Shown piece by piece: positions 10,391 through 38,741 of a DNA stretch of 38,771 bases (its first letter is position 1; each line of letters starts with the position of its first letter). The notes beneath the pieces were generated by a model. It made no database searches. It saw only the letters and a list, made by a program, of their open reading frames with translations, and had not been told where the DNA came from. The stretch covers positions 1 through 38,771 of the IMG/VR virus record IMGVR_UViG_3300042458_001162; one strand, written 5' to 3'. Made by a program: the position numbers and the translations under genes. The stretch comes from a virus.

Positions 10391-11304
10391 TAGAATACGT
10401 TATAAACGTTAAGTTTATGTAATTCATTATCGTTTTGGATTGAGAACTCTGGATCATTCTCAGGACGGATTGAATTAGTTGTATAGATACCGTCAAAAAG
10501 TTTATTTAATTCCTTTAGACCGCTTGAAAAGATACCGTGTGTGATTACTAATGTTATAGTATCATTTGTTTGTGCCTGTGGTCTAACTGTACGAATTGCT
10601 TTTGCTAATTCTATAAAGGTTCTTCCACCATCACAGATATCATCAACGATTAGAAAATGTTTAGCAACATTTTGTGTAGATAAGCCAGGTACGTCAGTAT
10701 GAGTGATTTTTCCTGTTTTGATATCTCTGTGTTTAGATGCAACAACGATATCTTCAATACCAAATTGTTCAGCAACATCATAGATCTTTTTCAGAGCACC
10801 AGCATCAGGAGAGACAAGAGTAACTTGTTTACATTTTTCTTTAAATGTAATTGCTGCAGATGAGCTCTTAACGATTGCGTGACTAACCAAAACATGATTA
10901 GAAGTTTTCTTGTAGTTATTTAAACATGCCTCAAGAACATCGGAATGAGGATCCAATACATGCACCTCAGTAAAATTCTGAGCATTAATAATTGGGCAGA
11001 TTACTGTCTTAAGATAATTAGAAGCTCCTTCTAGAAATTTTCTATCTGATCTTGCACCTAAGAAGTACGGAACATATAAGTAAACTTGTTTTGCACCCAT
11101 TTCAAGCAAGGCTTGGTTTGCGCAAATGATTAATTCTAAATCACGAAACGAGTTTAATCTTGATTTGATTTCTACGTTTTTGATTTTAGTACTGAACGAA
11201 TAGCCTTTAGGTTCAATCGTAATAGATTGTTGACCGTCAGGAAAATTTGAGATTTTAAAATCGATGTCAGATTTCTCAGGATCTGCTAAATTAAGTATGT
11301 TCAT
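10390..11304 (-). CDS. Ribose-phosphate pyrophosphokinase family (Prs-like; possible NARP1 Adps)
   Basis: 304 residues with the phosphoribosyl-pyrophosphate synthetase fold: FPDGQQ (21-26) at the ATP site, PYFLGARSDRK (79-89) flexible loop, DPHSD (118-122), VSPDAGA (164-170), and the ribose-phosphate loop DDICDGGRT (221-229). Normal Prs makes PRPP from ribose-5-phosphate and ATP. The last loop has GGR where housekeeping enzymes usually have T-G/A-G-T, which may mean a different sugar-phosphate substrate. In NARP1 the homologue Adps pyrophosphorylates ADP-ribose for Namat. It heads the operon with macrodomain, small ORF and NADAR, behind the promoter at 11324-11380. Confidence 0.88.
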   Translation of the reverse strand: MNILNLADPEKSDIDFKISNFPDGQQSITIEPKGYSFSTKIKNVEIKSRLNSFRDLELIICANQALLEMGAKQVYLYVPYFLGARSDRKFLEGASNYLKTVICPIINAQNFTEVHVLDPHSDVLEACLNNYKKTSNHVLVSHAIVKSSSAAITFKEKCKQVTLVSPDAGALKKIYDVAEQFGIEDIVVASKHRDIKTGKITHTDVPGLSTQNVAKHFLIVDDICDGGRTFIELAKAIRTVRPQAQTNDTITLVITHGIFSSGLKELNKLFDGIYTTNSIRPENDPEFSIQNDNELHKLNVYNVF

Positions 11305-15639: not shown

Positions 15640-16377
15640 TCATCCACCGGGCGTTTTATACTTCTTTTGCGCCGTTAATGCCTTAGTGGAATCTTTATTA
15701 TTAAGTTCACTCCTGTTTAATATCTCCATTCTTGACTTTGCATAAAGCTGATACACATAAGCAACTGCTTTACCTGCTAATTCACGCGGAACAAAATACG
15801 GAACCATCTCAAAATCTTCAACTTCAATTAAGACTGGGTTTTTAATTTGTGTGATATCATAATTTCTTACAGCAAAAGCTAATCCAATCTTAGAATTTTT
15901 ATCAAAGTTACTAGCCATAAAAAACCAATTAGTAACCAACTTATTAATTACTTTCATAGAAGCTAGTCTATCATCGTCACTCATTTCATCTGCAATCTTG
16001 TATGCGTCTCCAAAGATTCGGTAAGCTGTATCTATAAACTGTGCTTTTGCTTTCTCTGGAAGGAAATTAAGGTTCACACCTTGAACTATGTGCATGCCTG
16101 ATGATGGTGATATAAACTCTCCTATAATATAAACCATAGGACGTTTATCATAAAAATCTAATACATCGGCACCGTGCGGCATATACTGATATGTATAAAT
16201 TCGGCCGGGCATAAAAAATTTAAGTTGTCTTGCCTTAAATCTTTCAGTTTGCTCAATGATCCAATAGTTTGTAAAAGGTTCTTTAAAGTACTTATCATTA
16301 AAGTATTGAAAAGATTCCTTGCGCAGCTGTTCTTTATCTTGAGCATCATCATAACGCTCCATGAATGTCTTTTTCAT
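15640..16377 (-). CDS. Protein of unknown function in the head-gene cluster
   Basis: 245 residues. The central part has FMPGRIYTYQYMPHGADVL (about 54-72), DKRPMVYIIGEF and VQGVNLNFLP (about 98-107). This GxIYxYxY / YDxxPxV / GxNLxxLP pattern recurs in unassigned virion-associated proteins of T4-like phages. C-terminus helical and basic. The ATG overlaps the gp4 stop by 4 bp and the gene is followed by portal, so a head, neck or tail role is likely; it does not look like T4 gp2 or gp53. Confidence 0.7.
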   Translation of the reverse strand: MKKTFMERYDDAQDKEQLRKESFQYFNDKYFKEPFTNYWIIEQTERFKARQLKFFMPGRIYTYQYMPHGADVLDFYDKRPMVYIIGEFISPSSGMHIVQGVNLNFLPEKAKAQFIDTAYRIFGDAYKIADEMSDDDRLASMKVINKLVTNWFFMASNFDKNSKIGLAFAVRNYDITQIKNPVLIEVEDFEMVPYFVPRELAGKAVAYVYQLYAKSRMEILNRSELNNKDSTKALTAQKKYKTPGG

Positions 16378-16871
16378 CGTGGTACTGCTTTAAATAAGAA
16401 ATCTTCAGTTACGATGATAAATTTATAACCGATGGACTCAGCATGTATTTTTGCTGCTGAAAATTTTGCTGTGTTAATGATAAAAGTTTTAGCCGCATAG
16501 TTAAAACTTTTAAGTTTACTTGTAGTCTGTATGCCTTCATACACAGGGCGGAGTAAAGAAGCAGCTGGTTTAACTTCAACTAAATAGTCTTGTTCAACTT
16601 CGTCTTTAACTGCTCTCATATAAAAGTCTATATAATAATCATGAGTCTTTCCATCTATAGGACTAACATATTTAATAGGGAATGGTTCTGATGACCATTT
16701 TAATACGTTAGTAGAATCATCACAATACCTACAAAACTTATATTCCCATGAGGAGCGATAGATGATCTTTGTGGGATCACCTATATACTTCTCTGGGTTA
16801 TTTAGTGTGTAATAGCCTTGGCGGAATTTGCTTTTAGCTGTAGGCTTGTTTGATTTTATATCAGATGCCAT
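16374..16871 (-). CDS. Head completion protein, gp4-like (nuclease-like)
   Basis: 165 residues. Strong resemblance to T4 gp4 (gp50): NPEKYIGDPTKIIYRSSWEY (25-44), then LKWSSEPFPIKY (about 57-68), DYYIDFY (about 78-84) and YLVEVKP. The D...EVK arrangement fits a PD-(D/E)XK/TnsA-like nuclease fold. gp4 finishes packaged heads before tail joining. It overlaps the gp55 gene by 11 bp and the next gene by 4 bp. Confidence 0.9.
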   Translation of the reverse strand: MASDIKSNKPTAKSKFRQGYYTLNNPEKYIGDPTKIIYRSSWEYKFCRYCDDSTNVLKWSSEPFPIKYVSPIDGKTHDYYIDFYMRAVKDEVEQDYLVEVKPAASLLRPVYEGIQTTSKLKSFNYAAKTFIINTAKFSAAKIHAESIGYKFIIVTEDFLFKAVPR

Positions 16872-17205
16872 AGAAATTTTCGTTGTTAATAGAAACTTGG
16901 TCTAAAGAACTTAATGGGTGTAATTTCCTCCATCCTTTAGCAAACCCATTCTTCAACATTTGCGTGTAATACGCAAAAGGATATTTAGATTTCTCTGGAT
17001 TGTAGCTTTTCCAATATCGGATAACATCCATCATCGCAAACGCAATACAATCTTTTCTATCTTCTTCATCTTTATATCGAAATTTCTTTGACATTTCTTT
17101 TGCCATTCTTTGAAAGATTTCGATAGCGCGTGGAGTTAATACTCCCTTTTCTAATGATAATAGAACTTCTTTTTTAAGTTCTTCGGGTTCTACGTAATTT
17201 GCCAT
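16861..17205 (-). CDS. Late-transcription sigma factor, gp55-like
   Basis: 114 residues. NPEKSKYPFAYYTQ (69-82) matches DPEKSKNPFAYFTQ of T4 gp55, preceded by a sigma region 2-like helix (DCIAFAMMDVIRYWKSY). gp55 replaces the host sigma and, with the sliding clamp as mobile enhancer, reads the TATAAATA late promoter. It is shorter than T4 gp55 (185 aa). The C-terminus ends soon after region 2 (SSLDQVSINNENFYGI), and no clear gp45-binding LxxLF tail is visible. It starts immediately after the stop of the frameshift extension, inside a late operon. Confidence 0.85.
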   Translation of the reverse strand: MANYVEPEELKKEVLLSLEKGVLTPRAIEIFQRMAKEMSKKFRYKDEEDRKDCIAFAMMDVIRYWKSYNPEKSKYPFAYYTQMLKNGFAKGWRKLHPLSSLDQVSINNENFYGI

Positions 17206-23796: not shown

Positions 23797-24222
23797 TTAA
23801 AATAATCGTTTAATATTCTTTTTACGAAAGATGTCGTATTTGCCATCTAATTCTTTAAGTAACGCTTCTTTGTATGTTGGGGCAAGTTCTTCGTATAATA
23901 AATCGTATGATATGCTCATAAACTCTGCAACCGCAACAAACTTTTCTACTGCTGCCATTCCTTTTGAGTTTTTTAAGTTATCATCAAAGTAATAATAGAT
24001 ACGAGCCACATCACTACGAACTACTTTTTTGTTTTTAGAATAGTCTTCATAGAAGTCAGATGCTTGAAAGATTTCATATAAGTCTTCCTGTAATCTGTTA
24101 TCTGTGTATTCTTCAAAGGTATCACGGGGTACATATTTGTCATGTACTTTAATTGCACCAAATGTTTCGTACTCAATGTCTCCTGTGTTGTACCGGTTGT
24201 TAAAAATTTTATCTTCTTTCAT
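23797..24222 (-). CDS. Helical protein of unknown function beside the helicase
   Basis: 141 residues, mostly helical, rich in Tyr, Asp and Lys. The C-terminus is basic (RKKNIKRLF). Its ATG shares a base with the helicase stop (TAATG). A helicase-loader or accessory role could be guessed from this coupling, but it shows no recognisable gp59 similarity and is shorter than T4 gp59 (217 aa). Confidence 0.72.
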   Translation of the reverse strand: MKEDKIFNNRYNTGDIEYETFGAIKVHDKYVPRDTFEEYTDNRLQEDLYEIFQASDFYEDYSKNKKVVRSDVARIYYYFDDNLKNSKGMAAVEKFVAVAEFMSISYDLLYEELAPTYKEALLKELDGKYDIFRKKNIKRLF

Positions 24223-25523
24223 TATTCAGATGTCATTTGAGAGTCAGGATCCTGAGTAATTCTCATAAGATCGTAACTGATTAAAAATCGTTGGCGGGCA
24301 TTCTTGTACCCGTCATTTCTATTGGCAATTAATTTTAGTATGTATTCACGATTAGCATGCATGATCTCATCTTGTATGATACCGAACATTGCATCAACCG
24401 TATGTCCTAATGCCGCAGACTCTGAAATGTTATTTGCACTTAAGTCAGTGCTTCCAAAACCTGAACGGTTTATTTGAGTGGCTGTAATGATTGCCCAATT
24501 GTTTCGCATTGCCATAGCTCGAAGATCTTCAGCAATTTGCTTAATCTTCATGTATGTATTTTCGGAGTTAGGGTTTCTCCAGTTTTTCAAGATGTTAATA
24601 TAATCCAGGACAATTACTTTAAACTTAATTCCTTTGATTTCTTCCATCTTAATCAAGTAACGTTCAATGTCAGGTACACCAGCAGAAGATGTTGGGAATT
24701 CTTTTACATATAATTTCCCAGGGACCTGTAGGCTTTCATAACCCATGTTACTGATTTTGTGTTTCATCATGGTTCTGTCTTCCGCAATAACATCATATTC
24801 TTTCATGTTAATACCTAAAAGATTTGCACCTAAACGTTTAATAAGTTTACGGTCTCTCATCTCTAATGATAAAACCGCTGTGTTATAACCTAGCTTAACA
24901 GAGTTAGCCGCAACGTTTGCTAACCAGATTGACTTACCAATCTTCATTTCTCCAATAAAACAGAATAGGGCTTTAGAATACCAACCACCACCAAGGACAA
25001 GATCCATCATTGGGATTCCTGTACTAAATGTATCAGTTGAAGGCTGGTGATGCGATTCAGGATTAAAGAAATCCAAACCTTCATCAAAATTAAATTGAAT
25101 GTTATTACGTTCAGTTATAATGTTCTTAGCATTTTGAACTACGTCTTTAACGTTTTCAGTAGTAACTTTTGTGGTCTTAAGATAATTTAATAAGTCGTAA
25201 ACTGATAGATCAAGATTCTTATACTCAATCCAAGATTCTGCAGTTTCTCTTAACCATTCATCTTCGTATTCTTTAAGGTTAACTTCATAAAGATAATCAA
25301 TTTTCTTGTTATCCAATTCTTCGGATAAACCTTTCATTTTGATTAATTCATTAATCTGTGAACGGGTTGGTATGTCATTATACTTTTCAGTAAATTCCTG
25401 AGCTATTTCGTATATCTTACGTATATCTGCAGTATCGAAAAAGCGAGATTTAACGACATCCAGTAATTCCCTCCTATCCATCAGATAGTGGAAAAAGATT
25501 TTTTCTAAGTGTGTTGCTACCAT
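24222..25523 (-). CDS. Replicative DNA helicase, gp41-like (DnaB family)
   Basis: 433 residues. N-terminal helical domain (1-140), then a RecA-type ATPase with TFSTGIPMMDLVLGGGW (165-181), Walker A GEMKIGKS (191-198), SLEMRDRK (about 220-227), Walker B FKVIVLDYINIL, and AIITATQINRSG with the sensor Gln. Walker A has Lys-Ile-Gly-Lys-Ser, in the pattern of T4 gp41. It unwinds the fork as a hexamer. Neighbours UvsX, polymerase and clamp make a replication/recombination operon. Confidence 0.93.
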   Translation of the reverse strand: MVATHLEKIFFHYLMDRRELLDVVKSRFFDTADIRKIYEIAQEFTEKYNDIPTRSQINELIKMKGLSEELDNKKIDYLYEVNLKEYEDEWLRETAESWIEYKNLDLSVYDLLNYLKTTKVTTENVKDVVQNAKNIITERNNIQFNFDEGLDFFNPESHHQPSTDTFSTGIPMMDLVLGGGWYSKALFCFIGEMKIGKSIWLANVAANSVKLGYNTAVLSLEMRDRKLIKRLGANLLGINMKEYDVIAEDRTMMKHKISNMGYESLQVPGKLYVKEFPTSSAGVPDIERYLIKMEEIKGIKFKVIVLDYINILKNWRNPNSENTYMKIKQIAEDLRAMAMRNNWAIITATQINRSGFGSTDLSANNISESAALGHTVDAMFGIIQDEIMHANREYILKLIANRNDGYKNARQRFLISYDLMRITQDPDSQMTSE

Positions 25524-25554: not shown

Positions 25555-25884
25555 TTACATCCACGGGTTTCTAATTAACCTGTAGTAACTGTGGCTCTTA
25601 TCTGTTCGAGTTTTTTGTAAAAATAATTCATTTTCCGGTAGCCCTTCGTCAGCTATGCTATCAAGAAAAATACGAAAATCTTTTAATGTAGCAATGCATG
25701 ATCGCATCGGTCCCCAAATGTTTTCAGCTCTAAACTCGCGGTCAAGCCATGTGCCTTCTTCGTCACCTTCCTCCAACGAACGAATCATAACGTAAATTCT
25801 GTCCGTATGAGTAGGAAACCCTGGAATCTCACTATAGATATCCAGGGCATACTTTACTTCAAGTTTGTTTTGATTAATTGTCAT
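25555..25884 (-). CDS. Protein of unknown function between UvsX and helicase
   Basis: 109 residues from the ATG at 25884, which overlaps the UvsX end by 11 bp. A longer frame up to 25947 lies wholly inside uvsX and is less likely. Mixed fold with the segments WLDREFRAENIWGPM and SHSYYRLIRNPWM; no family recognised. Coupling to uvsX suggests a recombination or replication accessory role. Confidence 0.68.
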   Translation of the reverse strand: MTINQNKLEVKYALDIYSEIPGFPTHTDRIYVMIRSLEEGDEEGTWLDREFRAENIWGPMRSCIATLKDFRIFLDSIADEGLPENELFLQKTRTDKSHSYYRLIRNPWM

Positions 25885-27130
25885 CTTCGTCGTCGTCTTC
25901 AAGAATATTGTCCATTTCCAATTCTTCAAGTTCACTAAGATCTGCAATGTTTGGTAACATAAACATTTTCTTAATTACCTTTTCATCAAGCTCACGTAGA
26001 ACTTCATCAGTAATAACTTTAGTTGTAAACAGTTCAGCAGGTTTTAATTCACAGCCTAAGTGACGAACTACAATTGATCTTGCAGTTTCTTTAGGTTCAA
26101 GATAAAGTACTCTTGTATTTCCAGCTTCATCAGTATGCTCAAAACGAGTTGGTCCAATGATTGCTTCAGCTGGTTTGCCTTTAACGTGTTTATCAAATCC
26201 TTTCTGGTCCATAAGTTTTCCTTTTTGGATTCCACAGTTTTCCCAGTTGATGAATGTTTCAAGACCAACGAATCTGTTCATACCTTTATAAAAACTGATA
26301 TGGAACTTAACAGGAATAGGACGAGCAAAACGATTCTTTGCAGGTTTAGATGTTACAATGATACCTGTCTTTTGTACACCGGCAGCAGCAGCCTCATCTC
26401 CGCCTTCTTTAAGACCAGCTTTAGAAAGTTGTAAGATTACAGACGCATTATAGATTGCTCCACCTCCACCAGAAATAGTTTGTCCTGGTATGAATGATCC
26501 AATACTTGCGTATGTGTGGTTAGTAAAGATAAATGGAATTTTCATTTCAGCAAGATCCGTTGTAATTACACGGAATAAAGAACGAAGTTCTTGTTGCTTT
26601 GTCATATCCTTTTTTTCACTACCGCTCATAGCATCACCTCTTTCTTTATTTGTGGCAAGGTTGCCTAAAGAGTCGAGGACAAGCATGATCTTAGGAAGTT
26701 CAGTTCCTTTATCTTTTGCTTTTTTCAATGTATCACATAAGTTGGTAACAAAGTGACGTACTTCTTGGGGAGTACTTACAGGTTGGTATCTGAATTTTTC
26801 TGGGTCTACTCCAAAATTACGAATGATATCTTCATCAACCGCAGCCTCAGAATCCATGTATATAATGTTGTAGTCCATTTTTTGTGCTTCACGACAAGCG
26901 TTAAGAGTCAAGAAAGTTTTACCAGTTCCAGATTCACCTGCCACACAGATAGATCTTGAGTTTGGGTATCCTCCGAAAAGTGAACCACTAAGTTGTGCAT
27001 TTAATAAGTAGTTCCCAGTGTCTATCCATTCATCAATCTTTGAGAAAGTATTGATTGTAATGATAGATCCTTTGTCATTTACTTTGGTAAGCGCGTTGTC
27101 AAGATCTGTAAAAGAAAGTTGTTTAGCCAT
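25874..27130 (-). CDS. uvsX: UvsX recombinase (RecA family)
   Basis: 418 residues. Walker A GESGTGKT (65-72), YMDSEAAVD (about 91-99) with the catalytic Glu region, Walker B-like IMLVLDSLGNL, and the strand-exchange region FTNHTYASIGSFIPGQ with a Gly-rich loop (SGGGGAIY). It ends in an acidic tail of Asp/Glu, as T4 UvsX does. It coats single-stranded DNA and drives strand invasion. Lies 16 bp after the polymerase fragment. Confidence 0.94.
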   Translation of the reverse strand: MAKQLSFTDLDNALTKVNDKGSIITINTFSKIDEWIDTGNYLLNAQLSGSLFGGYPNSRSICVAGESGTGKTFLTLNACREAQKMDYNIIYMDSEAAVDEDIIRNFGVDPEKFRYQPVSTPQEVRHFVTNLCDTLKKAKDKGTELPKIMLVLDSLGNLATNKERGDAMSGSEKKDMTKQQELRSLFRVITTDLAEMKIPFIFTNHTYASIGSFIPGQTISGGGGAIYNASVILQLSKAGLKEGGDEAAAAGVQKTGIIVTSKPAKNRFARPIPVKFHISFYKGMNRFVGLETFINWENCGIQKGKLMDQKGFDKHVKGKPAEAIIGPTRFEHTDEAGNTRVLYLEPKETARSIVVRHLGCELKPAELFTTKVITDEVLRELDEKVIKKMFMLPNIADLSELEELEMDNILEDDDEDDN

Positions 27131-27146: not shown

Positions 27147-28328
27147 TTAGAATAGTTGTGTTCTTACAATTAGCTCCGAAGATATCGGAGGTAATCCTAT
27201 TGCACTAATAAATCGATTAAGTGGGTCAATTATGTTTTTAGCAAACTGCGTATCATAATCAACGGGAGGTGCAAATTCAATAGGATGATTTCCAGGTAAG
27301 TAAGCAAATACATTTTCACCAACACCATAGTCGGTCTTTGCATAATAGTATCTTACTTTGTCACCAGATTTGATTAATTGATATTTGTTTTTCCACTTAC
27401 TGTTATTTAATGAATAGTTGTGGAACCCAGCAGCCCGTACATGCATTGGGCAATGATTATTAAGAATAAGTTTTTTACGGTCATCAGCAACTCCTTTTTC
27501 GTAATCAGTAATTCCAGAGGACATTGAAATGTTTTCAATATTATCTAACATAAAACTATCCTTTTCTTTTTTCAGCAAGTCAGCAAGTGCTCGCATGTTA
27601 AGTTTAGTTTTTTCACGGAAGATAATCTTTAATAGCTCTTTCAATTTGTTACGAGCAAATAGCGGAGTAGAAGATTGAACAATCTCAACACCTACTGCTT
27701 TTATTTTCTCCAGTGGCTGATAATTAATACCATCACCTTGTCCATCTTTCCAAGCAATATCCATACAGTACTTTTTCTTTTTCAAAAGAATTACTGAATA
27801 AGATATCGTTTCCATTTCAAGATCTTGAATGTTTTCCGTTCCTGTTTGGTCAGCGTACTGTTTATACGATTTCTCAATATAACTTTTTATCCTATGCTTA
27901 TAAATGCCTTTAAGTAAATCACGAGGATCTCCAGGCCAGTCACAACCTTTAACAACTTCTTGGAATGTAATGTAACACGAGTCAGTATCACCGTAAATTG
28001 AAACCTCTTGAGTTACTTTTTCTGCTCGAGTTATACCAAGGATATCATGCAGTTCTTTATCACGATGCCAAAAATCTAAAAAGTAACGATTAAATATTTT
28101 GGTAGCAATTCCGCGGACCTCCTGTCCTTGCAATGTGATAGCCTCAGCAACTCTTACATTATAACCTACGAAATACGGTGAGGCTGTTGCGCCATAAACC
28201 GAGTTAATGAAAATCTTAATTGCCTGTTCTTCATTCTTCTTCAAATTCATAAGATTGGTCAGGCGACTTATTTCTGTCGTGATCTCCTCCTTTGAAGAAT
28301 TCTTTGGGTCGATCTTACAGTATTTCAT
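27147..28328 (-). CDS. DNA polymerase family B, C-terminal fragment (gp43B-type split)
   Basis: 393 residues covering only the second half of a T4 gp43-like polymerase. Motif B KIFINSVYG (38-46; T4 KALLNSLYG), motif C YGDTDS (112-117), thumb features VGVEIVQSSTP (T4 MGLETQKSSTP) and CPMHVRAAG (T4 CPFHIRGIL), and a C-terminal TQLF that may contact the clamp. The 3'-5' exonuclease domain and motif A (SLYPS) are absent and no upstream remnant exists: the ATG overlaps the clamp stop by one base (TAATG). The N-terminal half is not in this window. A free-standing start 37 codons before motif B argues for a stable two-subunit polymerase rather than decay. Confidence 0.93.
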   Translation of the reverse strand: MKYCKIDPKNSSKEEITTEISRLTNLMNLKKNEEQAIKIFINSVYGATASPYFVGYNVRVAEAITLQGQEVRGIATKIFNRYFLDFWHRDKELHDILGITRAEKVTQEVSIYGDTDSCYITFQEVVKGCDWPGDPRDLLKGIYKHRIKSYIEKSYKQYADQTGTENIQDLEMETISYSVILLKKKKYCMDIAWKDGQGDGINYQPLEKIKAVGVEIVQSSTPLFARNKLKELLKIIFREKTKLNMRALADLLKKEKDSFMLDNIENISMSSGITDYEKGVADDRKKLILNNHCPMHVRAAGFHNYSLNNSKWKNKYQLIKSGDKVRYYYAKTDYGVGENVFAYLPGNHPIEFAPPVDYDTQFAKNIIDPLNRFISAIGLPPISSELIVRTQLF

Positions 28329-29074
28329 TAGTCAGCTTTTCCGATAATCATTTTTGTTTCAGTTTCAATTGAATGGAAGATTAATCTATCCTCATTCATA
28401 TAAACCATTGTGTCTTCTTTATCCAAGTAAGCAAATTGAGATTTGTAAACTGAGATAGTCAAGTTAGCAGAAGTATCATCGATGTTTAACAAGTTAAGGT
28501 TAAATGATTTTCCTGAAGCTTTTACCACTCCGTTTTTAACAGATAAAGTTAAAAGTTTTTGGTCTGGGTCAAGTGACACAAGAGAGTTGATTCTTGCTTG
28601 TAATTCTTTTGTAAGAACAAAGCTAGTTTGCGCAGTTTCGTGATTAGCGATACGATCCATCATTTCATCAGTGATGTGCGTGAATAATCTTAAAGAAGCA
28701 CATTGATAATTGATGTCAAGAGAATCATTCTTAAGTGTAATTCCTGTACCTACTAATCCTTCAGAGGTATTTTCTGTGTCAAGGTCAAACTGAATGTTTG
28801 AATCTCCAAAGTGAGAGAACGATTTCATTAAACGGTCAAGTGAGATAACTCCAAACAATAGTGCTTGTTCTGGTGTTACTGCTTCATCACCGAATATTCT
28901 GCTTAATTCGATTTTTGATGATTTCACAACACTTCTTTCAGGTGTATGTGTTTTTGCTTTAAAATAACCGTCTTCAACTTCGATAAGTAAAGATGGAGCT
29001 ACAGAAGAAAATCGCTTTAAGAAATTTGTTAGTTCTTCAGAAGATTGTAGTTGTAATTGAATTTGATTGCTCAT
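28328..29074 (-). CDS. Sliding clamp, gp45-like
   Basis: 248 residues with low but patterned resemblance to T4 gp45 (228 aa): two similar beta-rich halves, LLFGVISLDRLMKSFSHFG in the first, and a second half with LTKELQARINSLVSL, LLTLSVKNGVVKASGKSF and a final YMNEDRLIFHSIETETKM. Direct coupling to the polymerase fragment supports the call. The clamp tethers polymerase and, in T4-like phages, also activates late transcription with gp55. Preceded by a GAATATA element. Confidence 0.7.
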   Translation of the reverse strand: MSNQIQLQLQSSEELTNFLKRFSSVAPSLLIEVEDGYFKAKTHTPERSVVKSSKIELSRIFGDEAVTPEQALLFGVISLDRLMKSFSHFGDSNIQFDLDTENTSEGLVGTGITLKNDSLDINYQCASLRLFTHITDEMMDRIANHETAQTSFVLTKELQARINSLVSLDPDQKLLTLSVKNGVVKASGKSFNLNLLNIDDTSANLTISVYKSQFAYLDKEDTMVYMNEDRLIFHSIETETKMIIGKAD

Positions 29075-29127: not shown

Positions 29128-29733
29128 TTAAATGATCTCATCTATTAGACCATATTTTTTACATTTCTTTGCACTCCACCAAATATCACGAGATAGGATT
29201 TTATCCATTTCCTCAACAGGAATCGTAGTGTATTTTTTATAGTGCTTTTTAATAGTTTTCATAATGCCATCATTATTATCCAAGTGATCTTTCATTGCTG
29301 AATGTTTTCCCCAGCAAGCATCACTAAGTTCATGAACAAGCATGTATGCGTTTTCTCTCATTAACCTTTTGGAACCGGCTACTGAAATAATAGTTGCACC
29401 AGATGCAGCAGCACCTTCAACGATAGTTATAATTGGCACCACTTTAGAAATTCTCGCAATTGTGTCAGCAATTGCGAAAGATGCAAATACATCACCGCCC
29501 ATAGAATTAATATGTAACCAAATTGGAGCTGGCGGATTAACTTCATGCATTGAAGAAAATGCCGAAGGTGCCATTTGCATTGACACTGTCTGTAAAAGTT
29601 TGTTTAGTTCTAATGCTGATTCTGATGATACTTCTGTATAAAAATATACGTGGTCTCCTAGTGCTGATACTCCACTTACGCCTGGCATTGGAAATTCCAT
29701 ATCATCATTGTTTTTGTTTTTGTCTCTATTCAT
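29128..29733 (-). CDS. ClpP-like serine protease
   Basis: 201 residues from the ATG at 29733, which overlaps the topoisomerase stop by 8 bp; the longer frame to 29853 is inside that gene. ClpP-fold features: IWLHINSMGGDV (71-82, oxyanion/turn), VEGAAASGATI (105-115, nucleophile S111), and MLVHELSDA (131-139, general base H134); the Asp is less certain. It could be a Clp-type protease acting on host or phage proteins, or, since some phages use ClpP-fold enzymes for head maturation, a prohead protease. It sits among replication genes, but two genes with capsid-targeting-like ends lie about 1.5 kb away. Confidence 0.85.
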   Translation of the reverse strand: MNRDKNKNNDDMEFPMPGVSGVSALGDHVYFYTEVSSESALELNKLLQTVSMQMAPSAFSSMHEVNPPAPIWLHINSMGGDVFASFAIADTIARISKVVPIITIVEGAAASGATIISVAGSKRLMRENAYMLVHELSDACWGKHSAMKDHLDNNDGIMKTIKKHYKKYTTIPVEEMDKILSRDIWWSAKKCKKYGLIDEII

Positions 29734-31144
29734 AGTTTTCGGATTCTTCATCATCATCCGCGGATTGTGAATTGCCAAAGACTGCAATACCATCGATCTC
29801 TTCTTCATCAATAAATAAGTTTGCTGAAGAGCTACTTCTGTTTGTAGTTCCACGTTTAAGCGACGTGTCTGTCATTCCTGCCAAAACAGTTATTGCTTCG
29901 TTAAGTTCGATTTCTTGTTTCTTAAGCTCTTCTGTTAGTTCTTTAATTTTTGCTCGTGTTCTTTCTAATTCTTGCTCGGTTAATGATTTTAGATAAATAG
30001 ATTCAAGACGTCTGCGGATATTAGGATATCCTTTAGTTAAAGTTTTTAGGAATGCTTCAATTTGATCATCGGTAATCATTTGCGTTTTTTTGCCTTCAAG
30101 CATAAATAGCAAATACTTTTCCTTTTGAATTGAGAACTGTAGTTCATCAACGTTTTCTTGTTTAAAGTACTCTAATCTTTTAACTCTTAATTCTGATATG
30201 CGGTAACGGTAATCATCAATGTAATCTTCAATACGATTATATTCCAAAACCATTCCGTCTTTAACAAAGACTGGTGTTTCAGTCACAATCATTTTAATCG
30301 ATTTATCTACTGCTTCAACGAATACCGGCCATTCTTCCTTTGTTCCAGTGAACTGTAAAAGAATGTCAACATTTACTTGAGAGTTGTTAGTCAATTTAAT
30401 TGAATGATTAGCAATAAGGTTTTCTATCTTTTTCAAGAATGAACCGTATTTCATCAACGGTGGTAATTCTGTAATACGAATAGTTTTAGCAGTTGGGTTA
30501 TTTTCAGAAACTCCTTCAATTAACCAGGTTTTATCTAATCCTTTGTATCTTGAAACTTTACCACCAAAGTTTTTAAATTTTGGTTTAACTTCTTTAGCTT
30601 TTCCGTCAAGATATTTTTGTACGTCTCCAAGATCTCGTGGTAAAACTGTAGTTGCATAACCAACAGCAATTCCAATTATAGTGTTTGTTAATCCGATTGG
30701 CAAATCTACCCATAGCGGTTTCCAAGCACCTTCATCGTTTTTCTCATTTAAGAAATTGCTTTTACGTATCACTTCGGCAATTTTGGGATTAATTCTAACT
30801 GACGTATAACGTGCAGCAGATGCCTCGTGATTAATTGGTGATCCAAAGAATCCATCACCAAGAAGTAGTTGCTCGGAGTTTCCAAATGGACGAGCAAGTT
30901 TGTTTATTGCACCAGTCAAAGATTTATCTCCGTGGTGATATCCATCAGTTATACAAGATCCTACTAAGCCTAAAGATTTGTTAAAACTGTGTGGAGCGTT
31001 CAGCATGATAATTCGCTGAACATTTGTTAACCCATCGTAAAAAGAAGGAATACCTCGATTTTCTAAAACATATAAAGCGTAGTTTCTGAAGTTGGTATCA
31101 ATCTGTCTTGAGATAGGTAAAGGATAAATTTTAGATTTTGCCAT
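29726..31144 (-). CDS. DNA topoisomerase II medium subunit, gp52-like (GyrA/ParC-type)
   Basis: 472 residues, near T4 gp52 (442 aa). DNA cleavage-reunion core: DGLTNVQRIIM (37-47), HHGDKSLTGAI (70-80), and the active-site Tyr113 within ASAARYTSVR, preceded by R112. A coiled-coil region lies about 300-400. It lacks the GyrA beta-pinwheel, as in T4. The C-terminus is acidic. It pairs with the ATPase subunit at 32421-34238. Confidence 0.93.
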   Translation of the reverse strand: MAKSKIYPLPISRQIDTNFRNYALYVLENRGIPSFYDGLTNVQRIIMLNAPHSFNKSLGLVGSCITDGYHHGDKSLTGAINKLARPFGNSEQLLLGDGFFGSPINHEASAARYTSVRINPKIAEVIRKSNFLNEKNDEGAWKPLWVDLPIGLTNTIIGIAVGYATTVLPRDLGDVQKYLDGKAKEVKPKFKNFGGKVSRYKGLDKTWLIEGVSENNPTAKTIRITELPPLMKYGSFLKKIENLIANHSIKLTNNSQVNVDILLQFTGTKEEWPVFVEAVDKSIKMIVTETPVFVKDGMVLEYNRIEDYIDDYRYRISELRVKRLEYFKQENVDELQFSIQKEKYLLFMLEGKKTQMITDDQIEAFLKTLTKGYPNIRRRLESIYLKSLTEQELERTRAKIKELTEELKKQEIELNEAITVLAGMTDTSLKRGTTNRSSSSANLFIDEEEIDGIAVFGNSQSADDDEESENYE

Positions 31145-32420: not shown

Positions 32421-34238
32421 TTAGATTGTGCCCTCAAGCCATTTCTTTCTTTTATTAGCGTTTGGTCCAAAAGCAATATCGATGAATTTAGCAGCTGACC
32501 TATCTTGACGTATTCTAAACATTTGTCTTTCAGACATTACCACTTCCCAATCTTGTATGCTCAATGATCCTAAACCTTTTAAATACCTTACACCTTTATA
32601 AGCTGTGCCACCTTGTTCAAAGGCTGCCCACTCTTGTAACGAATAAAAGTATTTTCGTTTACCACCAACTTCAGCAGAAACAAGTGGAGTAATAAGTATG
32701 TTTAATTTGTTCTGTTCAATTACTTGTGGAAACCACTTATAGAATAAGTTAATAACCAATGAAGCAATATGTCCAATTCCATCAGGGTCCCAATCTGTTG
32801 ATATAGCAACATTAGCAAAAGAACATTTGCTACCATCACGAGGTTCAAGATTTAAGATATTCATTAAATCAATGATTTCATTATTTGAAGACAAGTCGGA
32901 AATTGACCGAGCATTTTTTATCTTTCCTTTTAATGAATATACTGCATCAACTCGAGGGTCTCTCTTTTGTAAGATAGAACCCATAGCTGAACTTCCCTCC
33001 ACAATAAATAAAGTTCCTTTTGATTGTGAAGCAGGGAAGTATTTGTCAGATATCTTTTTAGCAGCGGCTTTCTTTTTTGCTTTAAGATTATTCATATCTG
33101 CTTTAAGATTTCTTTCGTCAATCTTTTTCTTCACACCAACGTAAAATTCCGACCTTAAAATAGCAGGTCTTAATTTCTTGAAGAAATCTTTCTCAAGCAT
33201 ATGTTGGATTTCCCAACGCCCACCTGCATACTTAGTTTTATTTTGGTCTGCAAACCTTACAAGTTTAGCAGGAAAGTTTAATATAAGTAAAGTTTCATAG
33301 AAGTGGTGAGCAGCATTGTACTCAAAGATATCATTAACCCAATCAGTAAAAATCTTTTGATGAATACCTGTACATAGAGCACCATTAATAAATGAAGCAC
33401 TTGCAGCATTTTCATATTTCTCCCAGATTACAAACATACCGTGTTTTCCTGCAAATGTTAAAGCATTGTCAGGTAAGAAGGCTTGGTTTAAGTTTAGTTT
33501 TTCCCCGTCAAAGTAAAATTCAATTTCAAGATTTCCAATAACAGGATCTTGGTTCTTTAAGAACTCTCTGAATATAAACATGGTATGAAGATATTCTTTA
33601 TCCCATGTACATCCTTTAAAAATATCTGAACGAGGTATGTAAGTAACTGAGGTTCCTGTTACTTGATTGCGTTTCTTAGGAGTAGAAGTTTCAGCGGTTT
33701 TAACAAACTTATTCCAAGTTATGTTATACTCAATCTCTGAATTTATTGTTGTGATAGTAAATTCATCGGAAAGCATATTCACTAAAGCAGCACCTACACC
33801 ATTGGTCCCAATTAAACTATCTGAGGAATCGTCATTATAAAAATTAGATCCTGCTCTTAACATTGACATTGCTGTCTCTACGTTACTAGATTTTGTTTTA
33901 GAGTTTATCTTATCAGCATTTATAAAACCACCACCAGTATCAGTTACTGTAACGCCGTTTGTCTTTGAGTCAATCTTAACAATGATTTTGGGCATTACAC
34001 CTTTCATTCTTTTAGCTTCATCAAAAGCATTGTCAACGATTTCATTTAACATCTTATAAAACCCAACAGAAAATATTTTGTTCTTTTCTATAAGTTTTCC
34101 ATCTTCAACGATTTGCACTTTTTCTTCAGTTTTCTCAACTGAACCGATGTACATGGTCGGTCTGTGGATAACGTGCTCAAAATCCGAGAGCGCTACAATT
34201 TCCTTGTTAGATTCTTCAACTTTTTTTGCTTTTGCCAT
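32421..34238 (-). CDS. DNA topoisomerase II large subunit, gp39-like (GyrB/ParE-type)
   Basis: 605 residues. GHKL ATPase: LNEIVDNAFDEA (N box, about 64-75), TDTGGGF (about 98-104), IGTNGVGAALVNM (about 143-155), and QNKTKYAGG lysine loop; TOPRIM: TLFIVEGSSAMGS and DWDPDG. T4 splits this subunit into gp39 and gp60; here it is one intact gene. It works with the subunit at 29726-31144, separated from it by three small genes. Confidence 0.93.
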   Translation of the reverse strand: MAKAKKVEESNKEIVALSDFEHVIHRPTMYIGSVEKTEEKVQIVEDGKLIEKNKIFSVGFYKMLNEIVDNAFDEAKRMKGVMPKIIVKIDSKTNGVTVTDTGGGFINADKINSKTKSSNVETAMSMLRAGSNFYNDDSSDSLIGTNGVGAALVNMLSDEFTITTINSEIEYNITWNKFVKTAETSTPKKRNQVTGTSVTYIPRSDIFKGCTWDKEYLHTMFIFREFLKNQDPVIGNLEIEFYFDGEKLNLNQAFLPDNALTFAGKHGMFVIWEKYENAASASFINGALCTGIHQKIFTDWVNDIFEYNAAHHFYETLLILNFPAKLVRFADQNKTKYAGGRWEIQHMLEKDFFKKLRPAILRSEFYVGVKKKIDERNLKADMNNLKAKKKAAAKKISDKYFPASQSKGTLFIVEGSSAMGSILQKRDPRVDAVYSLKGKIKNARSISDLSSNNEIIDLMNILNLEPRDGSKCSFANVAISTDWDPDGIGHIASLVINLFYKWFPQVIEQNKLNILITPLVSAEVGGKRKYFYSLQEWAAFEQGGTAYKGVRYLKGLGSLSIQDWEVVMSERQMFRIRQDRSAAKFIDIAFGPNANKRKKWLEGTI

Positions 34239-34327: not shown

Positions 34328-36178
34328 TTAAACGGATATGTCTGAATATTGCAAAATTTTAACACCTTTAGATTGAGCTGTCTTTATTTTGTTACTTAGA
34401 TTATTTATGTCTTCAACAAATAAAACTTTTGCACTTGACATACCTACATGGTGATAACCTTTTTCTTTAGCAGCCTTAACAAATTCATCCTTGGTTTTAA
34501 ATCCTGCAGATTTTGGAGAACCGCTCATCTCAAACGGAATTGAGTCAGCGGCAACTTGTTCTGGTAGAATGATGTTTACATATTTACTAACAGCTGTAAT
34601 TATTTCATCATAGCGTAATCTTTTAGATCCGCCTGGTTCGAACCCAGCAATTACATCCTTTTGTAAACCGTGGAATGAATGAGGTAATCCTGTTAGATAA
34701 TTTTCTAATTGTTTAGCAACCGTATGACCCATACCGTCAATTCCCATACATAAGATTAATTTCATTGGATGAATATCCTTAATCTTGGCAATTTCCTTAA
34801 ACATATTATCTACAGTTTTACTGTCCTTAACGCCATTTGCTAATAGGATTGCTTTATTAAATTTAGTAGGGTCAAGTAAATCTAACGGATTTCTGAAACC
34901 AGCTTCCCATATAGAATTTATCATGGCACCACCTACACCGTCAAGTCCTAATACATTAACGCCAGTATGGAATTTATTTTGTGCCTTTGCAGAACAGTCA
35001 GGATTAACGCAAATTAAATGTACTTCTTGTACTTCTAGTTTTGCGCCACACTTACAGTCAACAGGATGGTCCAAAACAGTATTTGGTGATGGTGTAATAA
35101 CTCTTAAGATTTGCGGAATAATATCACCGGCCTTAGCGATTGCTACAGTTGCTCCAACCATTGCACCGGATCCTTTAATAAATCCGATATTGAATAAAGA
35201 TGCTCGAGAAACAGTAGAACCGTCAAGATCCACAGGTTCCATAATTGCGACTGGAGTAACTCTTCCAGTTTTTCCCCATTGCCACGAGATATCTACAATT
35301 TTTGTTATAGCCTCCTTAGGTGGAAATTTAATTGCAATTGCCCAATTAGGATCATGTGAATTTTCACCAAGCTTGGCACGAAACTCAATAGGAGCTTTAA
35401 TAACAAATCCATCAAGCGGGTATTCGGATATTTCTTCTCTATAAGTTTTCATTGAGCTATAAGCAAACTCAAAATTATTGATTGAGTCTGCAAGATCAAT
35501 ATAAATTGAGTGAGCTGCAAATTTTAATCCTTTAATATCAGAAGGCTGGCGATATGTAACATCGCCGTCAATTTGCTGGCGAACCTCAACGGGTAAAAAG
35601 TCCAATTCAGAAATAGTAGTATCAGAATTATCGTCTCTGTTTAAAACACCGGCAACATAATTACGAGGATTTCTAAATTCATTTGCGTATTTCTGATTAA
35701 ATGTAGATTTTTTGATGCAAACTTCGCCACGTATTTCTACAGTCCCTGATAAAATAATAGTAGCTGGTACATTATGTTTTACTTTATCAGTAATATCACG
35801 GCCTTTAGTTCCATTACCTCGAGAAAGGATTTGAATTAATTTTCCATTTGCATAGATTACGTTTGCGGCGTTTCCGTCAAATTTTGGAGTTGCCTCAAAT
35901 TTTTTCGCCCCAGTATTTGTCATCCATTTATTTGCAGATTCTGTCGGTGGGGTACCGTCAGCGGCTGCCTGGAATTTACCTAAGGATAACATTGGAGATG
36001 GGTGAGAATATTTTGCCTTACGATCATCAGCGCCAACAATGAAAGGAGCAGTAGAACCTAAATTAATTAGTTCCTGTTCCATACGGTCAAATTCATCGTC
36101 AGACATGATTGGTTCACCAAGATAATAAGATTCCTTGGCTTGAAAATAAAGCTGTTCTAGGTCAAAGCGTTGGTTCAT
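34328..36178 (-). CDS. ligA: NAD+-dependent DNA ligase (LigA)
   Basis: 616 residues. YYLGEPIMSDDEFD (18-31) resembles the NAD+-binding Ia region, the adenylation motif is KFDG (K99), then RGNGTKGRDIT, EIRGEV and a nucleotidyl motif with WQWGKTGRVTP. A Cys4 zinc site (CKCG ... CVNPDC) is followed by helix-hairpin-helix repeats and a BRCT-like C-terminus (about 545-616). Seals nicks using NAD+ and releases NMN and AMP-DNA. T4 itself uses an ATP ligase (gp30), so this phage's DNA joining depends on NAD+. Confidence 0.94.
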   Translation of the reverse strand: MNQRFDLEQLYFQAKESYYLGEPIMSDDEFDRMEQELINLGSTAPFIVGADDRKAKYSHPSPMLSLGKFQAAADGTPPTESANKWMTNTGAKKFEATPKFDGNAANVIYANGKLIQILSRGNGTKGRDITDKVKHNVPATIILSGTVEIRGEVCIKKSTFNQKYANEFRNPRNYVAGVLNRDDNSDTTISELDFLPVEVRQQIDGDVTYRQPSDIKGLKFAAHSIYIDLADSINNFEFAYSSMKTYREEISEYPLDGFVIKAPIEFRAKLGENSHDPNWAIAIKFPPKEAITKIVDISWQWGKTGRVTPVAIMEPVDLDGSTVSRASLFNIGFIKGSGAMVGATVAIAKAGDIIPQILRVITPSPNTVLDHPVDCKCGAKLEVQEVHLICVNPDCSAKAQNKFHTGVNVLGLDGVGGAMINSIWEAGFRNPLDLLDPTKFNKAILLANGVKDSKTVDNMFKEIAKIKDIHPMKLILCMGIDGMGHTVAKQLENYLTGLPHSFHGLQKDVIAGFEPGGSKRLRYDEIITAVSKYVNIILPEQVAADSIPFEMSGSPKSAGFKTKDEFVKAAKEKGYHHVGMSSAKVLFVEDINNLSNKIKTAQSKGVKILQYSDISV

Positions 36179-36257: not shown

Positions 36258-36911
36258 TTATAGTTCTATACTATCTTTTATCTTTTGAAGTTCTGCACAC
36301 TTTTCATATTCTTCAGTTTCAAGTAATATATCAATCATTTGCTGCAACATTAAGTCTTTATCAGAGTTTGACTTGATACGTACGATTGTCATATCATCTT
36401 CAAAGATAATGTTACTATCATTTTGAATTTCATGAGTTACAAGATACTGATGTGCTTTCTTAAAGAAGTCTTTAATGTTATCATCAATGATACCTGTAGG
36501 TGTGTATGTCCATTCTTCTTTTACAAACCCTGAATTATCCAGAGTTCCTGGTGCATTATAAACTCGGTTATATGCAAGGGCAGATTGTAAGGCGGATAAA
36601 AATCCTGTCTCTACCTGGTCTGCTGTATATTTTAAATCGCTATCTTCCATCAAGTCCCATTCGTCAGGCATTTGCTGCGGAGGTACTACAAGAACGGTTC
36701 CGTACATTGCAACGTCAAAGAAGAAAGATGCCACCTTGTTAAGTGGCTCTCCGCTTTCTTTTGATTTTTCTCTGTACATAACCCATATAGGTCCAATCTT
36801 GATTGGTTCTATCCAGCCTTCAACATTATCATTAAGTTCATCAATATTGAATTTCCTTAATGATGGCTGAATTACTTTAACGATTGCGTCTGATGTTATT
36901 TTTACTGCCAT
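36258..36911 (-). CDS. DUF3846-like protein with UVR-like C-terminal helix pair
   Basis: 217 residues. Residues about 28-95 (VEGWIEPIKIGPIWVMYREK ... YGTVLVVPP) follow the DUF3846 pattern of a GxI sheet, an asparagine-containing turn (PLNKVA) and a G-T-xxVV ending; the family is common in phages with unknown function. The last 25 residues (ILLETEEYEKCAELQKIKDS) resemble a UVR (UvrB/UvrC) motif. Starts 3 bp after nrdA, so it is in the nucleotide-metabolism transcript. Both domain calls are by eye. Confidence 0.5.
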   Translation of the reverse strand: MAVKITSDAIVKVIQPSLRKFNIDELNDNVEGWIEPIKIGPIWVMYREKSKESGEPLNKVASFFFDVAMYGTVLVVPPQQMPDEWDLMEDSDLKYTADQVETGFLSALQSALAYNRVYNAPGTLDNSGFVKEEWTYTPTGIIDDNIKDFFKKAHQYLVTHEIQNDSNIIFEDDMTIVRIKSNSDKDLMLQQMIDILLETEEYEKCAELQKIKDSIEL

Positions 36912-36914: not shown

Positions 36915-38741
36915 TTATCCTTCACAGCTGACGCAGTCCGGGTCTGTTGCTCTTGCAGCAATATCTCCACGAAGTACTGATTCAGTTCTCATGTAATATA
37001 AAGTTTTTACTCCTTGTTTCCAAGCTTCCATATGAACTTGGTTTATCCATTTTGGTTCTGCAATTGATGGAAACGCAAGATTTAAAGAAACTGCTTGGTC
37101 AACGTATTGCTGACGAACACCTGCTTGTTTTACTAAGTCTAATTGATTAATTTCTTTAAACGTTTTAAATACATCTTTAACAGAATATGTTCTATCTTGA
37201 ATCATTGGATCTGTGATTGACGCACGTTCCACGAGTTTGCCATCTAAGAAACACCAGTCATCTAGAAAATCCAATCCTTGTACTGAACCACCGTCGGTTA
37301 ACATCTGGTCCCAAGTTTCTTTGTTATTCTTTCCAATTTTCTTTAATACTTTCTCAAGCTCAAAGTTTTTACGAATGAATGTTCCTTTTGCAGTTTGTTC
37401 TGTAAATACATTAGCTGCCCAAGGTTCAGCACCTGATGAAACGTTACCACTTAATTTAGAATTAGAAACCGTAGGAGCTACTGCTCTTAAGTGAGTGTTT
37501 CTCATTTCTGTATCTCTACACCATAGTGGTTCACCAAATTCTGCAGCAAGATCTCGAGAAGCTCTTTCACTTTCAATTTTCATTTGAGAAAAAATCTTAC
37601 GAGTTTCAAACTGTGCTTGCAGACCTTCAAACGGTAATCCTTTTTGTTGTAAGTAAGTGTGCCATCCAAGAATTCCTAATCCAAGTGCTCTACCTTTTTC
37701 AGCAGAACGCACAGAATTTTCAAATCCTCTAAGTCCTTTTGCTTTTTGGATAAATTCCTCAAGAACACCATCTAAGAATACGGTTGATGTATAAATTAAA
37801 TCTGTATCTCTCCATTCATCGTATTTTGCAAGGTTAAGAGAACTTAAACAGCAAACGAATGAGTGAGATTCATCTGTATGTAAAACGATTTCCGAACAGA
37901 TATTAGTCATGAATACTTTTAATCCGTTCTTTTTATATGCGTCAGGGTTTTGATTATTTACATTTCCTTTAAACATAATGTACGGCTCACCAGTTCCTTT
38001 ACGTTTTTGTAATAGCTTACCCCACTTACGTCTGGCTTCAGTATCACCATCTTGTAATTTGCGCATGAATTTATTTCCAATTACCGCGCATTGATGTAAG
38101 TTTAACGATTGACGATTAACATCACCTTTTGGTTCTCTAATCTCTAACCACTCTTCAAAATCTTTATGGTCTATACTCATGTTTACTGAAGCAGCGCCTC
38201 TACGAACAGAACCTTGATTGGTTGCAAGAATGGTTGAGTCATAAATTTTACAGAACGGAACTACACCATCTGATGTGCCGTTTCCTGTAATCTTAGCACC
38301 AGCAGGTCTGATTTGGTTAATTCCAATACCTACACCGCCGCCATGTTTTGCAAGAAGCATAAGTTCAAGATTCTTAGTTCCAATTTCATAAATTGAGTCT
38401 CCAACGTCAATACCGAAACATGAGATTGGTAAACCTCTATCAGATCCTGTATTAGAAAGTACTGGTGTTGCTAAACATAACCAACCTTTCCAAATGTAAT
38501 CAAAAAACTTTGATGCTAACTGTGGTTTTCCTAATCTACGAGCAATAGTTGTACATACTCTCCAATAGGCATCTTTTGGTTTTTCGCCAGGAAGTAGATA
38601 GCCTTTACTAATTGTCTTAACATAAATTTCAGTGTTACCCCATGTTGGGTAATCTACACCAAGTTCCCATCCAAAAGGTGCTCCATGATGTGTTCCTTTT
38701 ATAGGCTCCTTTGGCGCTTCAGGCTTTTCTTCTCTATACAT
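36915..38741 (-). CDS. nrdA: Ribonucleotide reductase class I large subunit (NrdA)
   Basis: 608 residues reducing ribonucleotides to deoxyribonucleotides for phage DNA. Active site: N280-C282-E284 (NICSE), redox cysteines C108 and C297/C298, Tyr pair Y582-Y583 (TLYYMRTES), and the C-terminal shuttle pair C603/C606 (DCVSCEG). Gly-rich KHGGGVGIG is at 132-140. The protein begins just before the catalytic barrel, so the N-terminal ATP-cone that gives dATP feedback inhibition in E. coli NrdA is missing. No nrdB is in the window; it may lie upstream. Only 30 bp of upstream sequence is visible, with no clear promoter. Confidence 0.95.
   Translation of the reverse strand: MYREEKPEAPKEPIKGTHHGAPFGWELGVDYPTWGNTEIYVKTISKGYLLPGEKPKDAYWRVCTTIARRLGKPQLASKFFDYIWKGWLCLATPVLSNTGSDRGLPISCFGIDVGDSIYEIGTKNLELMLLAKHGGGVGIGINQIRPAGAKITGNGTSDGVVPFCKIYDSTILATNQGSVRRGAASVNMSIDHKDFEEWLEIREPKGDVNRQSLNLHQCAVIGNKFMRKLQDGDTEARRKWGKLLQKRKGTGEPYIMFKGNVNNQNPDAYKKNGLKVFMTNICSEIVLHTDESHSFVCCLSSLNLAKYDEWRDTDLIYTSTVFLDGVLEEFIQKAKGLRGFENSVRSAEKGRALGLGILGWHTYLQQKGLPFEGLQAQFETRKIFSQMKIESERASRDLAAEFGEPLWCRDTEMRNTHLRAVAPTVSNSKLSGNVSSGAEPWAANVFTEQTAKGTFIRKNFELEKVLKKIGKNNKETWDQMLTDGGSVQGLDFLDDWCFLDGKLVERASITDPMIQDRTYSVKDVFKTFKEINQLDLVKQAGVRQQYVDQAVSLNLAFPSIAEPKWINQVHMEAWKQGVKTLYYMRTESVLRGDIAARATDPDCVSCEG

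What the first reader, a model, noticed from the sequence alone, without database searches (positions are those of the whole stretch)
27147..28328. DNA polymerase split immediately before motif B; only the C-terminal half is here
The gene starts 37 codons before motif B and encodes motifs B and C plus thumb, translationally coupled to the clamp. No exonuclease domain or motif A is present in the window, so the other half must be encoded elsewhere. Split gp43 (43A/43B) is known in some Aeromonas T4-like phages, and a split family B enzyme in Methanothermobacter, but a pair separated by many kilobases and coupled to the clamp gene would be noteworthy. Motif B is also a common intein site, a possible origin of the break.
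Basis: partly seen in the sequence, partly recalled or inferred. Interest (0 to 1): 0.72.

Follow-up and report, generated by a model that had tools for sequence, protein, structure and literature searches.

The report
Phage DNA polymerase encoded in halves
This virus and its relatives make their DNA-copying enzyme from two separate genes that lie thousands of letters apart, cut at the tip of the enzyme's 'fingers', and one relative carries the two halves joined in one gene, most simply read as the halves having fused again.

Summary
Confirmed. ORF 27147-28328 (-) is the C-terminal 393 residues of a T4-type family B polymerase (motif B, motif C, KKKY, clamp-binding-like tail). It starts by a TAATG overlap with the probable clamp gene. 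The window is a 38.8-kb linear IMG/VR fragment and holds no N-terminal half. The missing half was found in relatives: a 456-466-aa gene with exonuclease motifs and motif A, same strand, 10-19 kb upstream, with RNR, ligase, topoisomerase and clamp genes between. In the nearest relative (C-half 95% identical) synteny places it about 1 kb past the window's end. The break is at the fingers tip (RB69 about residue 504), the same point as in Aeromonas and Acinetobacter 43A/43B. No intein or intron was found at the break. A wider survey gave 72 split or N-half-only loci against 1 intact; in all 38 loci holding both halves the order is polN-nrdA-clamp-polC. PAU, the huge LR7565xx phages and Lak megaphages are also split, up to hundreds of kilobases apart. 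The one intact relative (G009) branches inside the split group, which suggests re-fusion. So: a known kind of split enzyme, in an unusually dispersed and widely conserved form.

The parts
27147..28328 (-). polC: C-terminal half of a T4-type family B DNA polymerase, 393 aa (second fingers helix, motif B, palm motif C, thumb, C-terminal tail)
   Evidence: PF00136, phrog_1918 and phrog_262 matches; PDB sequence match to RB69/T4 gp43 from residue 548-560 on
28218..28328 (-). N-terminal leader and fingers helix before motif B (MKYCKIDP...), start of polC at the fingers tip
   Evidence: alignments to intact polymerases and to other split ones
28191..28217 (-). motif B, KIFINSVYG (residues 38-46)
   Evidence: conserved core columns
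27978..27995 (-). motif C, YGDTDS (residues 112-117); uninterrupted here, but an intein insertion site in several relatives
27768..27779 (-). KKKY motif (residues 184-187)
27150..27173 (-). C-terminal tail LIVRTQLF, proposed clamp-binding peptide
   Evidence..TQLF or ..xxLF tail in most relatives; clamp binding inferred from T4 gp43, not tested
28328..29074 (-). probable sliding clamp, 248 aa; stop codon overlaps polC start (TAATG)
   Evidence: weak hhalign match to gp45; homologue directly upstream of polC in 38 of 38 surveyed loci with both halves
25874..27130 (-). UvsX-like recombinase, downstream of polC
   Evidence: phrog_97
24222..25523 (-). DnaB-type replicative helicase (gp41-like)
   Evidence: phrog_19, PF03796
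12225..13172 (-). clamp loader (gp44-like)
   Evidence: phrog_168, E 1.5e-62
29128..29853 (-). ClpP-like protease gene between topoisomerase and clamp
   Evidence: PF00574
29726..31144 (-). type II topoisomerase, medium subunit
   Evidence: PF00521, phrog_551
32421..34238 (-). type II topoisomerase, large subunit
   Evidence: phrog_543
34328..36178 (-). NAD-dependent DNA ligase
   Evidence: phrog_3869
36915..38741 (-). ribonucleotide reductase large subunit (NrdA); last gene before the window's end. By synteny with L044, nrdB and then polN (the N-half) follow outside the window, polN at about 39,795-41,183 if the window were extended
   Evidence: phrog_84; blastn of window against L044, 87.8% identity up to the window's end; L044 polN at 15796-17184

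Best explanation
The window carries the C-terminal subunit (polC) of a replicative DNA polymerase that this phage makes as two polypeptides. The N-terminal subunit (polN: N-terminal domain, 3'-5' exonuclease, first palm segment with motif A, first fingers helix) is encoded on the same strand about 10-12 kb upstream, next to nrdB and just outside the window. The two chains associate without a covalent link. The fingers hairpin, cut at its exposed tip, and the palm, to which each chain gives one catalytic aspartate, form the interface. The assembled enzyme works like T4/RB69 gp43. PolC, which carries thumb and tail, is made by translational coupling with the probable clamp. Evolution: the split most likely arose once in the ancestor of this phage group, with the clamp gene between the halves; nrdBA, and then ligase and topoisomerase genes, accumulated between polN and the clamp; in the megaphages the halves moved far apart; in one lineage (G009) they fused again. 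Shown: both genes in relatives, break point, motifs, gene order, selection, tree. Inferred: polN in this very genome, association, activity, coupling, single origin and re-fusion.
For: N-half found in relatives that carry the C-half: G001 (C-half 95% identical), G008, G010, G012, G013, G014, G016, G028, G029, G030, G032, G036, always same strand and upstream, 10-19 kb away. N-half has exonuclease motifs and motif A, C-half has motifs B and C. N-half model (pLDDT 82) covers RB69 gp43 residues 5-504, Z about 26; C-half aligns from about T4/RB69 residue 513-560 on. Purifying selection on both halves (C dN/dS 0.04, N 0.06). Order polN-nrdA-clamp-polC in 38 of 38 loci holding both halves, mostly with nrdB before nrdA and uvsX and helicase after polC; 72 split or N-only loci against 1 intact. 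The intact G009 joins the same two halves in one 877-aa chain and branches inside the split group (its exclusion from all split taxa of the group rejected, AU p 8e-5; 98-100% bootstrap with denser sampling). 43A and 43B of phage 25 co-purify and have polymerase activity (PMC2988022), and the 43A/43B break of 44RR and Ac42 is the same as here. No Rfam match in window or L044 at gathering thresholds.
Against: The N-half of this very genome is not in hand; its presence is inferred from synteny with a relative 85-88% identical at the DNA level. The close relatives are linear contigs, none known to be complete. The C-half alone was predicted with low confidence (pLDDT 52), which may reflect the shallow alignment as much as a missing partner. 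The clamp identity is weak. In the N-only tree the intact MaF61 falls among the split taxa with low support, and the exact place of G009 near this clade is not resolved (AU p 0.24-0.36), so the number of splits and fusions is uncertain.
Confidence: 0.87

Rival explanations
1. The halves are joined into one chain after transcription or translation, by a split intein or a trans-spliced split intron.
For: Split inteins do occur in this same polymerase: at motif C in LR756500, Lak-A2, G036 and G039. Phage 25 43B carries a group I intron.
Against: At the fingers break the N-half ends directly after a helix (..EQLKEYIK stop) and nrdB starts within about 20 nt; the C-half start overlaps the clamp-like stop codon, which leaves no room for intein or intron sequence outside the clamp-like gene. 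No Rfam match at gathering thresholds in the window or L044.
Confidence: 0.04
2. The C-half is a non-functional duplicate; an intact polymerase elsewhere does the work.
For: The window is a fragment, so the rest of the genome is unseen.
Against: Split relatives of 100-238 kb hold one N-half and one C-half and no full-length copy; the only other matches are weak, short, exonuclease-like ones. Catalytic motifs and strong purifying selection are kept.
Confidence: 0.03
3. The split arose several times independently within this phage group, and G009 keeps the ancestral intact gene.
For: Splits at the same tip did arise independently elsewhere: ACG-2014f within cyanophages, 44RR and Ac42 within T4-like phages, Atu_ph07. 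Several deep branches in the trees have weak support.
Against: Needs about four or five parallel splits against one split and one fusion. The order polN-nrd-...-clamp-polC, shared by this clade and by the separate group, would have to arise repeatedly. G009 keeps the rnr-ligase-topoisomerase-clamp order but lacks polN at the nrd site.
Confidence: 0.18
4. The break is a sequencing or assembly artefact.
For: None found.
Against: Same boundaries in tens of independent contigs from different metagenomes.
Confidence: 0.01

Closest known systems
Split gp43 (43A/43B) of Aeromonas phages 25 and 44RR2.8t and Acinetobacter phage Ac42
   Same: T4-type family B polymerase cut at the same place, the tip of the fingers (44RR and Ac42 aligned); both halves are separate genes; the phage 25 halves co-purify and are active (PMC2988022).
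   Different: There the halves lie 0.05-2.5 kb apart in the regA-43 region, in phage 25 with a homing endonuclease between. Here the halves lie 10-19 kb apart with replication and nucleotide genes between, polC follows the clamp-like gene, and the split characterises a large group.
Split polymerases of Sphingomonas phage PAU (gp105/gp110) and Chryseobacterium phage MA9V-1, and of Lak and other huge phages
   Same: Same break, same branch of the polymerase tree; PAU also has a clamp homologue between the halves.
   Different: 2-2.4 kb apart in PAU and MA9V-1; tens to hundreds of kilobases apart and on opposite strands in LR756501/2/4, G018 and Lak-A2. I found no description of the split in these phages in the papers searched.
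Split family B polymerase of Methanothermobacter thermautotrophicus and split PolB of Nanoarchaeum equitans
   Same: One family B polymerase encoded by two distant genes (own knowledge).
   Different: Cellular; from memory the breaks lie nearer motif C, and in N. equitans a split intein joins the chains. Break points not compared here.
Split-intein 'fractured' PolB genes (Pseudomonas phage MIJ3, PMC6892783)
   Same: Phage family B polymerase in pieces.
   Different: Joined by protein splicing, with an HNH endonuclease gene between the pieces; intein blocks are absent at the fingers break here. Relatives of this phage carry such inteins at motif C as a separate feature.
Split minimal DNA polymerase III alpha of group 2.2 jumbo phages (PMC7824862)
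   Same: A polymerase core predicted to be rebuilt from two proteins encoded by distant genes, in a group that includes Lak phages.
   Different: Polymerase III type, not family B; described as accompanying the family B enzyme.

Membership tests
T4-type family B DNA polymerase (gp43) | Polymerase motifs B and C and KKRY-like motif | tested here: met
   KIFINSVYG, YGDTDS, KKKY; PF00136 and phrog_262
T4-type family B DNA polymerase (gp43) | 3'-5' exonuclease domain and motif A | tested here: met
   absent from the window but present in polN of relatives: WNFIGYD, YYNAVDT, DFASLYPS, PF03104
T4-type family B DNA polymerase (gp43) | single polypeptide | tested here: not met
   two genes in relatives; so it is a split variant, not an ordinary gp43
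Split gp43, 43A/43B type | break at the tip of the fingers, between the two finger helices | tested here: met
   alignment; N-half model ends at RB69 residue 504
Split gp43, 43A/43B type | halves adjacent or separated by few small or mobile genes | tested here: not met
   10-19 kb in this clade; so it is filed as a new variant, not as 43A/43B proper
Split gp43, 43A/43B type | halves associate into an active enzyme | not testable with these tools
   reported for phage 25 only (PMC2988022)
Split-intein fractured gene | N-intein at the end of the first half and C-intein (..HN) at the start of the second | tested here: not met
   N-half ends ..EQLKEYIK, C-half starts MKYCKIDP
Sliding clamp (28328-29074) | PCNA/gp45 fold | tested here: inconclusive
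   hhalign probability 51%; no Pfam or PHROG hit at default threshold, no PDB profile hit

The most novel reading that the evidence does not exclude
An obligately two-subunit replicative polymerase is an ancient, shared trait of a large phage group reaching from aquatic T4-like phages to the Lak megaphages. The subunits are expressed separately (polN with nucleotide-synthesis genes, polC with the clamp), so that proofreading and polymerising parts can be supplied, timed or exchanged independently, and the split has been reversed by natural fusion in at least one lineage.
Probability: 0.2. Interest if true: 0.75.

Novelty: new variant of a known kind. Interest (0 to 1): 0.57.

Why it matters
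Replicative polymerases of this family are usually single catalytic chains. Here a probably clamp-dependent one appears to work as two chains in a large phage group, cut at one exposed loop that also tolerated cutting in other lineages. It makes testable how far the fingers need covalent continuity, whether exonuclease and polymerase parts can be regulated apart, and whether a long-split enzyme can fuse again (G009). It also matters for annotation: polymerase searches that require a full-length gene, as in viral surveys, will miss or miscount these phages.

Tried and rejected
(1) Intein or intron origin of the break: no intein motifs at the ends, no Rfam match at gathering thresholds. (2) A second full-length polymerase: not found in long relatives. 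(3) Frameshift or assembly error: excluded by recurrence. (4) Structure of the C-half alone: low confidence; its structural matches are too weak to use beyond a rough residue range. (5) Clamp identification by families or PDB profile: no useful hit; only a weak profile match. (7) Host: the scan of bacterial genomes gave only two distant relatives, in a Bacteroidetes MAG and a Clostridia MAG, too distant to name a host. (8) Papers: no description of a split family B polymerase in Lak or PAU in the held library; the 2009 paper on fractured genes is not held, and the 2010 paper on split gp43 was read only through a review.

Full report
What is in the window. The window is a linear IMG/VR virus record of 38,771 bases with its genes mainly on the - strand. 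The ORF at 27147-28328 encodes 393 residues that match the C-terminal part of family B polymerases: PF00136 positions 149-452, phrog_262 (gp43) positions 490-839, and phrog_1918, a family of about the same length (382) that matches over its whole length. It carries motif B at residue 38, motif C at 112 and KKKY at 184. In the PDB it matches RB69 and T4 gp43 from residue 548-560 on. The start codon overlaps the stop of the 248-aa ORF upstream as TAATG. A profile of the N-half finds nothing in the six frames.

The missing half. Related contigs were fetched with the C-half and searched whole. Five of the longer ones contain a second gene matching phrog_262 positions about 102-497 and the exonuclease family PF03104; seven more pairs of this kind came with later searches. 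In these twelve the two genes are on the same strand, the N-half upstream, about 10-19 kb from the stop of one to the start of the other (coordinates). The N-half of G001 matches phrog_2062 (502 positions), again a half-length family. In G001 (locus L044) the genes run polN, nrdB, nrdA, a 217-aa ORF, ligase, a 290-aa ORF, topoisomerase large subunit, small ORFs, medium subunit, clpP, clamp-like gene, polC, uvsX, helicase. The window aligns to it at 85-88% DNA identity up to nrdA at its right end, so the N-half should lie about 1 kb beyond the window.

Break point. Aligned with intact polymerases, the split ones break at the tip of the fingers hairpin, between its two long helices. The N-half model, confident over most of its length (pLDDT 82), covers RB69 gp43 residues 5-504 with Z about 26. 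Its one poorly predicted stretch, residues 350-383, includes the start of motif A (residue 378), where the palm would need strands of the C-half; this is suggestive only. The C-half alone was not predicted well (pLDDT 52). From established knowledge of RB69 gp43, the catalytic aspartates of motifs A and C and the fingers residues that bind the triphosphate would then come from different chains, so neither half should polymerise alone, while the N-half might keep exonuclease activity.

Not an intein or intron. The N-half ends in a helix with the next gene starting within about 20 nt; the C-half start overlaps the preceding stop codon; Rfam finds nothing at gathering thresholds. Inteins do occur in this polymerase, but at motif C: contiguous in G038 and G032, split in G036, G039, LR756500 and Lak-A2, in LR756500 with a long ORF, possibly an endonuclease, in the gap. 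That is a second, separate breakage of the same gene, like the split intein described in the polymerase of phage MIJ3 (PMC6892783).

How widespread. 44RR, Ac42 (7 ORFs between), ACG-2014f (2 small ORFs), PAU, MA9V-1 and Atu_ph07 break in the same region. In Lak-A2, LR756501, LR756502, LR756504 and G018 the halves are about 86 to several hundred kilobases apart in the record and on opposite strands. Of the loci classified, 72 held a split or N-half-only gene and 1 an intact one, G009. In all 38 newly surveyed loci that held both halves, nrdA and the clamp-like gene lay between them, the clamp-like gene directly before polC, with a median of 4.4 kb between the halves. In G023 only the clamp-like gene lies between. 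These counts are of contigs, not of independent events, and an N-half whose C-half lies outside the fetched stretch counts as split because its frame ends at the fingers tip.

One split and one fusion, probably. In trees of 32 and 49 taxa, the split polymerases of this phage, the group, LR756500, Lak, the other huge phages and PAU/MA9V-1 form one group, in which the intact G009 is nested. A tree with G009 outside all of these is rejected (AU p 8e-5); its exact place near this clade is not resolved. N-only and C-only trees agree in placing it next to this clade, although in the N-only tree the intact MaF61 also falls among the split taxa with low support. G009 keeps rnr-ligase-topoisomerase-clamp and has the fused gene in the polC slot, with no polN found in the rest of its 26-kb contig. 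The leader at the start of split C-halves (KYCKIDP, LKYSNID) has a counterpart inside the fused chain (TYSNIN); this fits a fusion but does not prove it, as intact polymerases have a loop there too. One ancestral split and one re-fusion is the simplest reading; several independent splits remain possible (18%).

Selection. dN/dS is 0.04 for the C-half between window and G001, and 0.06 for an N-half pair; the clamp-like gene gives 0.06.

What is known. The split kind is known: 43A and 43B of phage 25 co-purify and have polymerase activity (PMC2988022), and PHROGs already holds separate half families. A split minimal polymerase III in group 2.2 jumbo phages is reported (PMC7824862), and polymerase genes split by endonucleases in Jug phages (PMC12363816). 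I found no account of this dispersed, clamp-linked arrangement, of its breadth, or of a re-fusion, but the held library lacks many papers.

Limits. The close relatives are not known to be complete genomes; association of the halves is inferred; the clamp is only weakly identified; the survey counts depend on the patterns used by the search.

Noticed in passing
L069 14416-17816 (LR756500); L070 4974-7125 (Lak-A2); L238 6035-8837; L244 216-3058; L243 7995-9635; L265: Inteins at motif C (YxDTD|S) of polC: contiguous in G038 and G032, split into two genes in LR756500, Lak-A2, G036 and G039, so that these polymerases would be encoded in three pieces. In LR756500 a long ORF, possibly an endonuclease, lies in the gap.
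   Followed up: partly
L050 4377-7010 (contig IMGVR_UViG_3300000563_000024): The only intact polymerase found near this clade; nested among split ones, a candidate natural re-fusion.
   Followed up: partly
L071 4980-6527 (Lak-A2 polN): The N-half of Lak-A2 reads 43 residues further upstream, with a better profile match, if TAG is read as glutamine.
   Followed up: no
window 7391-8920 and 10390-11304: Nicotinamide phosphoribosyltransferase and ribose-phosphate pyrophosphokinase genes, as in phage NAD+ salvage.
   Followed up: no
G008:109163-109543, G012:62641-63153, G016:135618-136064: Second, short ORFs (236-242 aa) with a weak match to the exonuclease part of gp43 only.
   Followed up: no
window 36258-36911 and L044 9416-10288: Uncharacterised ORFs of 217 and 290 aa between the polymerase halves, no PHROG match; no counterpart of the 290-aa ORF of L044 was seen in the window.
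   Followed up: no
L277 and L278: Distant polC relatives in contigs binned as a Bacteroidetes MAG (254 kb) and a Clostridia MAG; in L278 the clamp homologue follows polC instead of preceding it.
   Followed up: no
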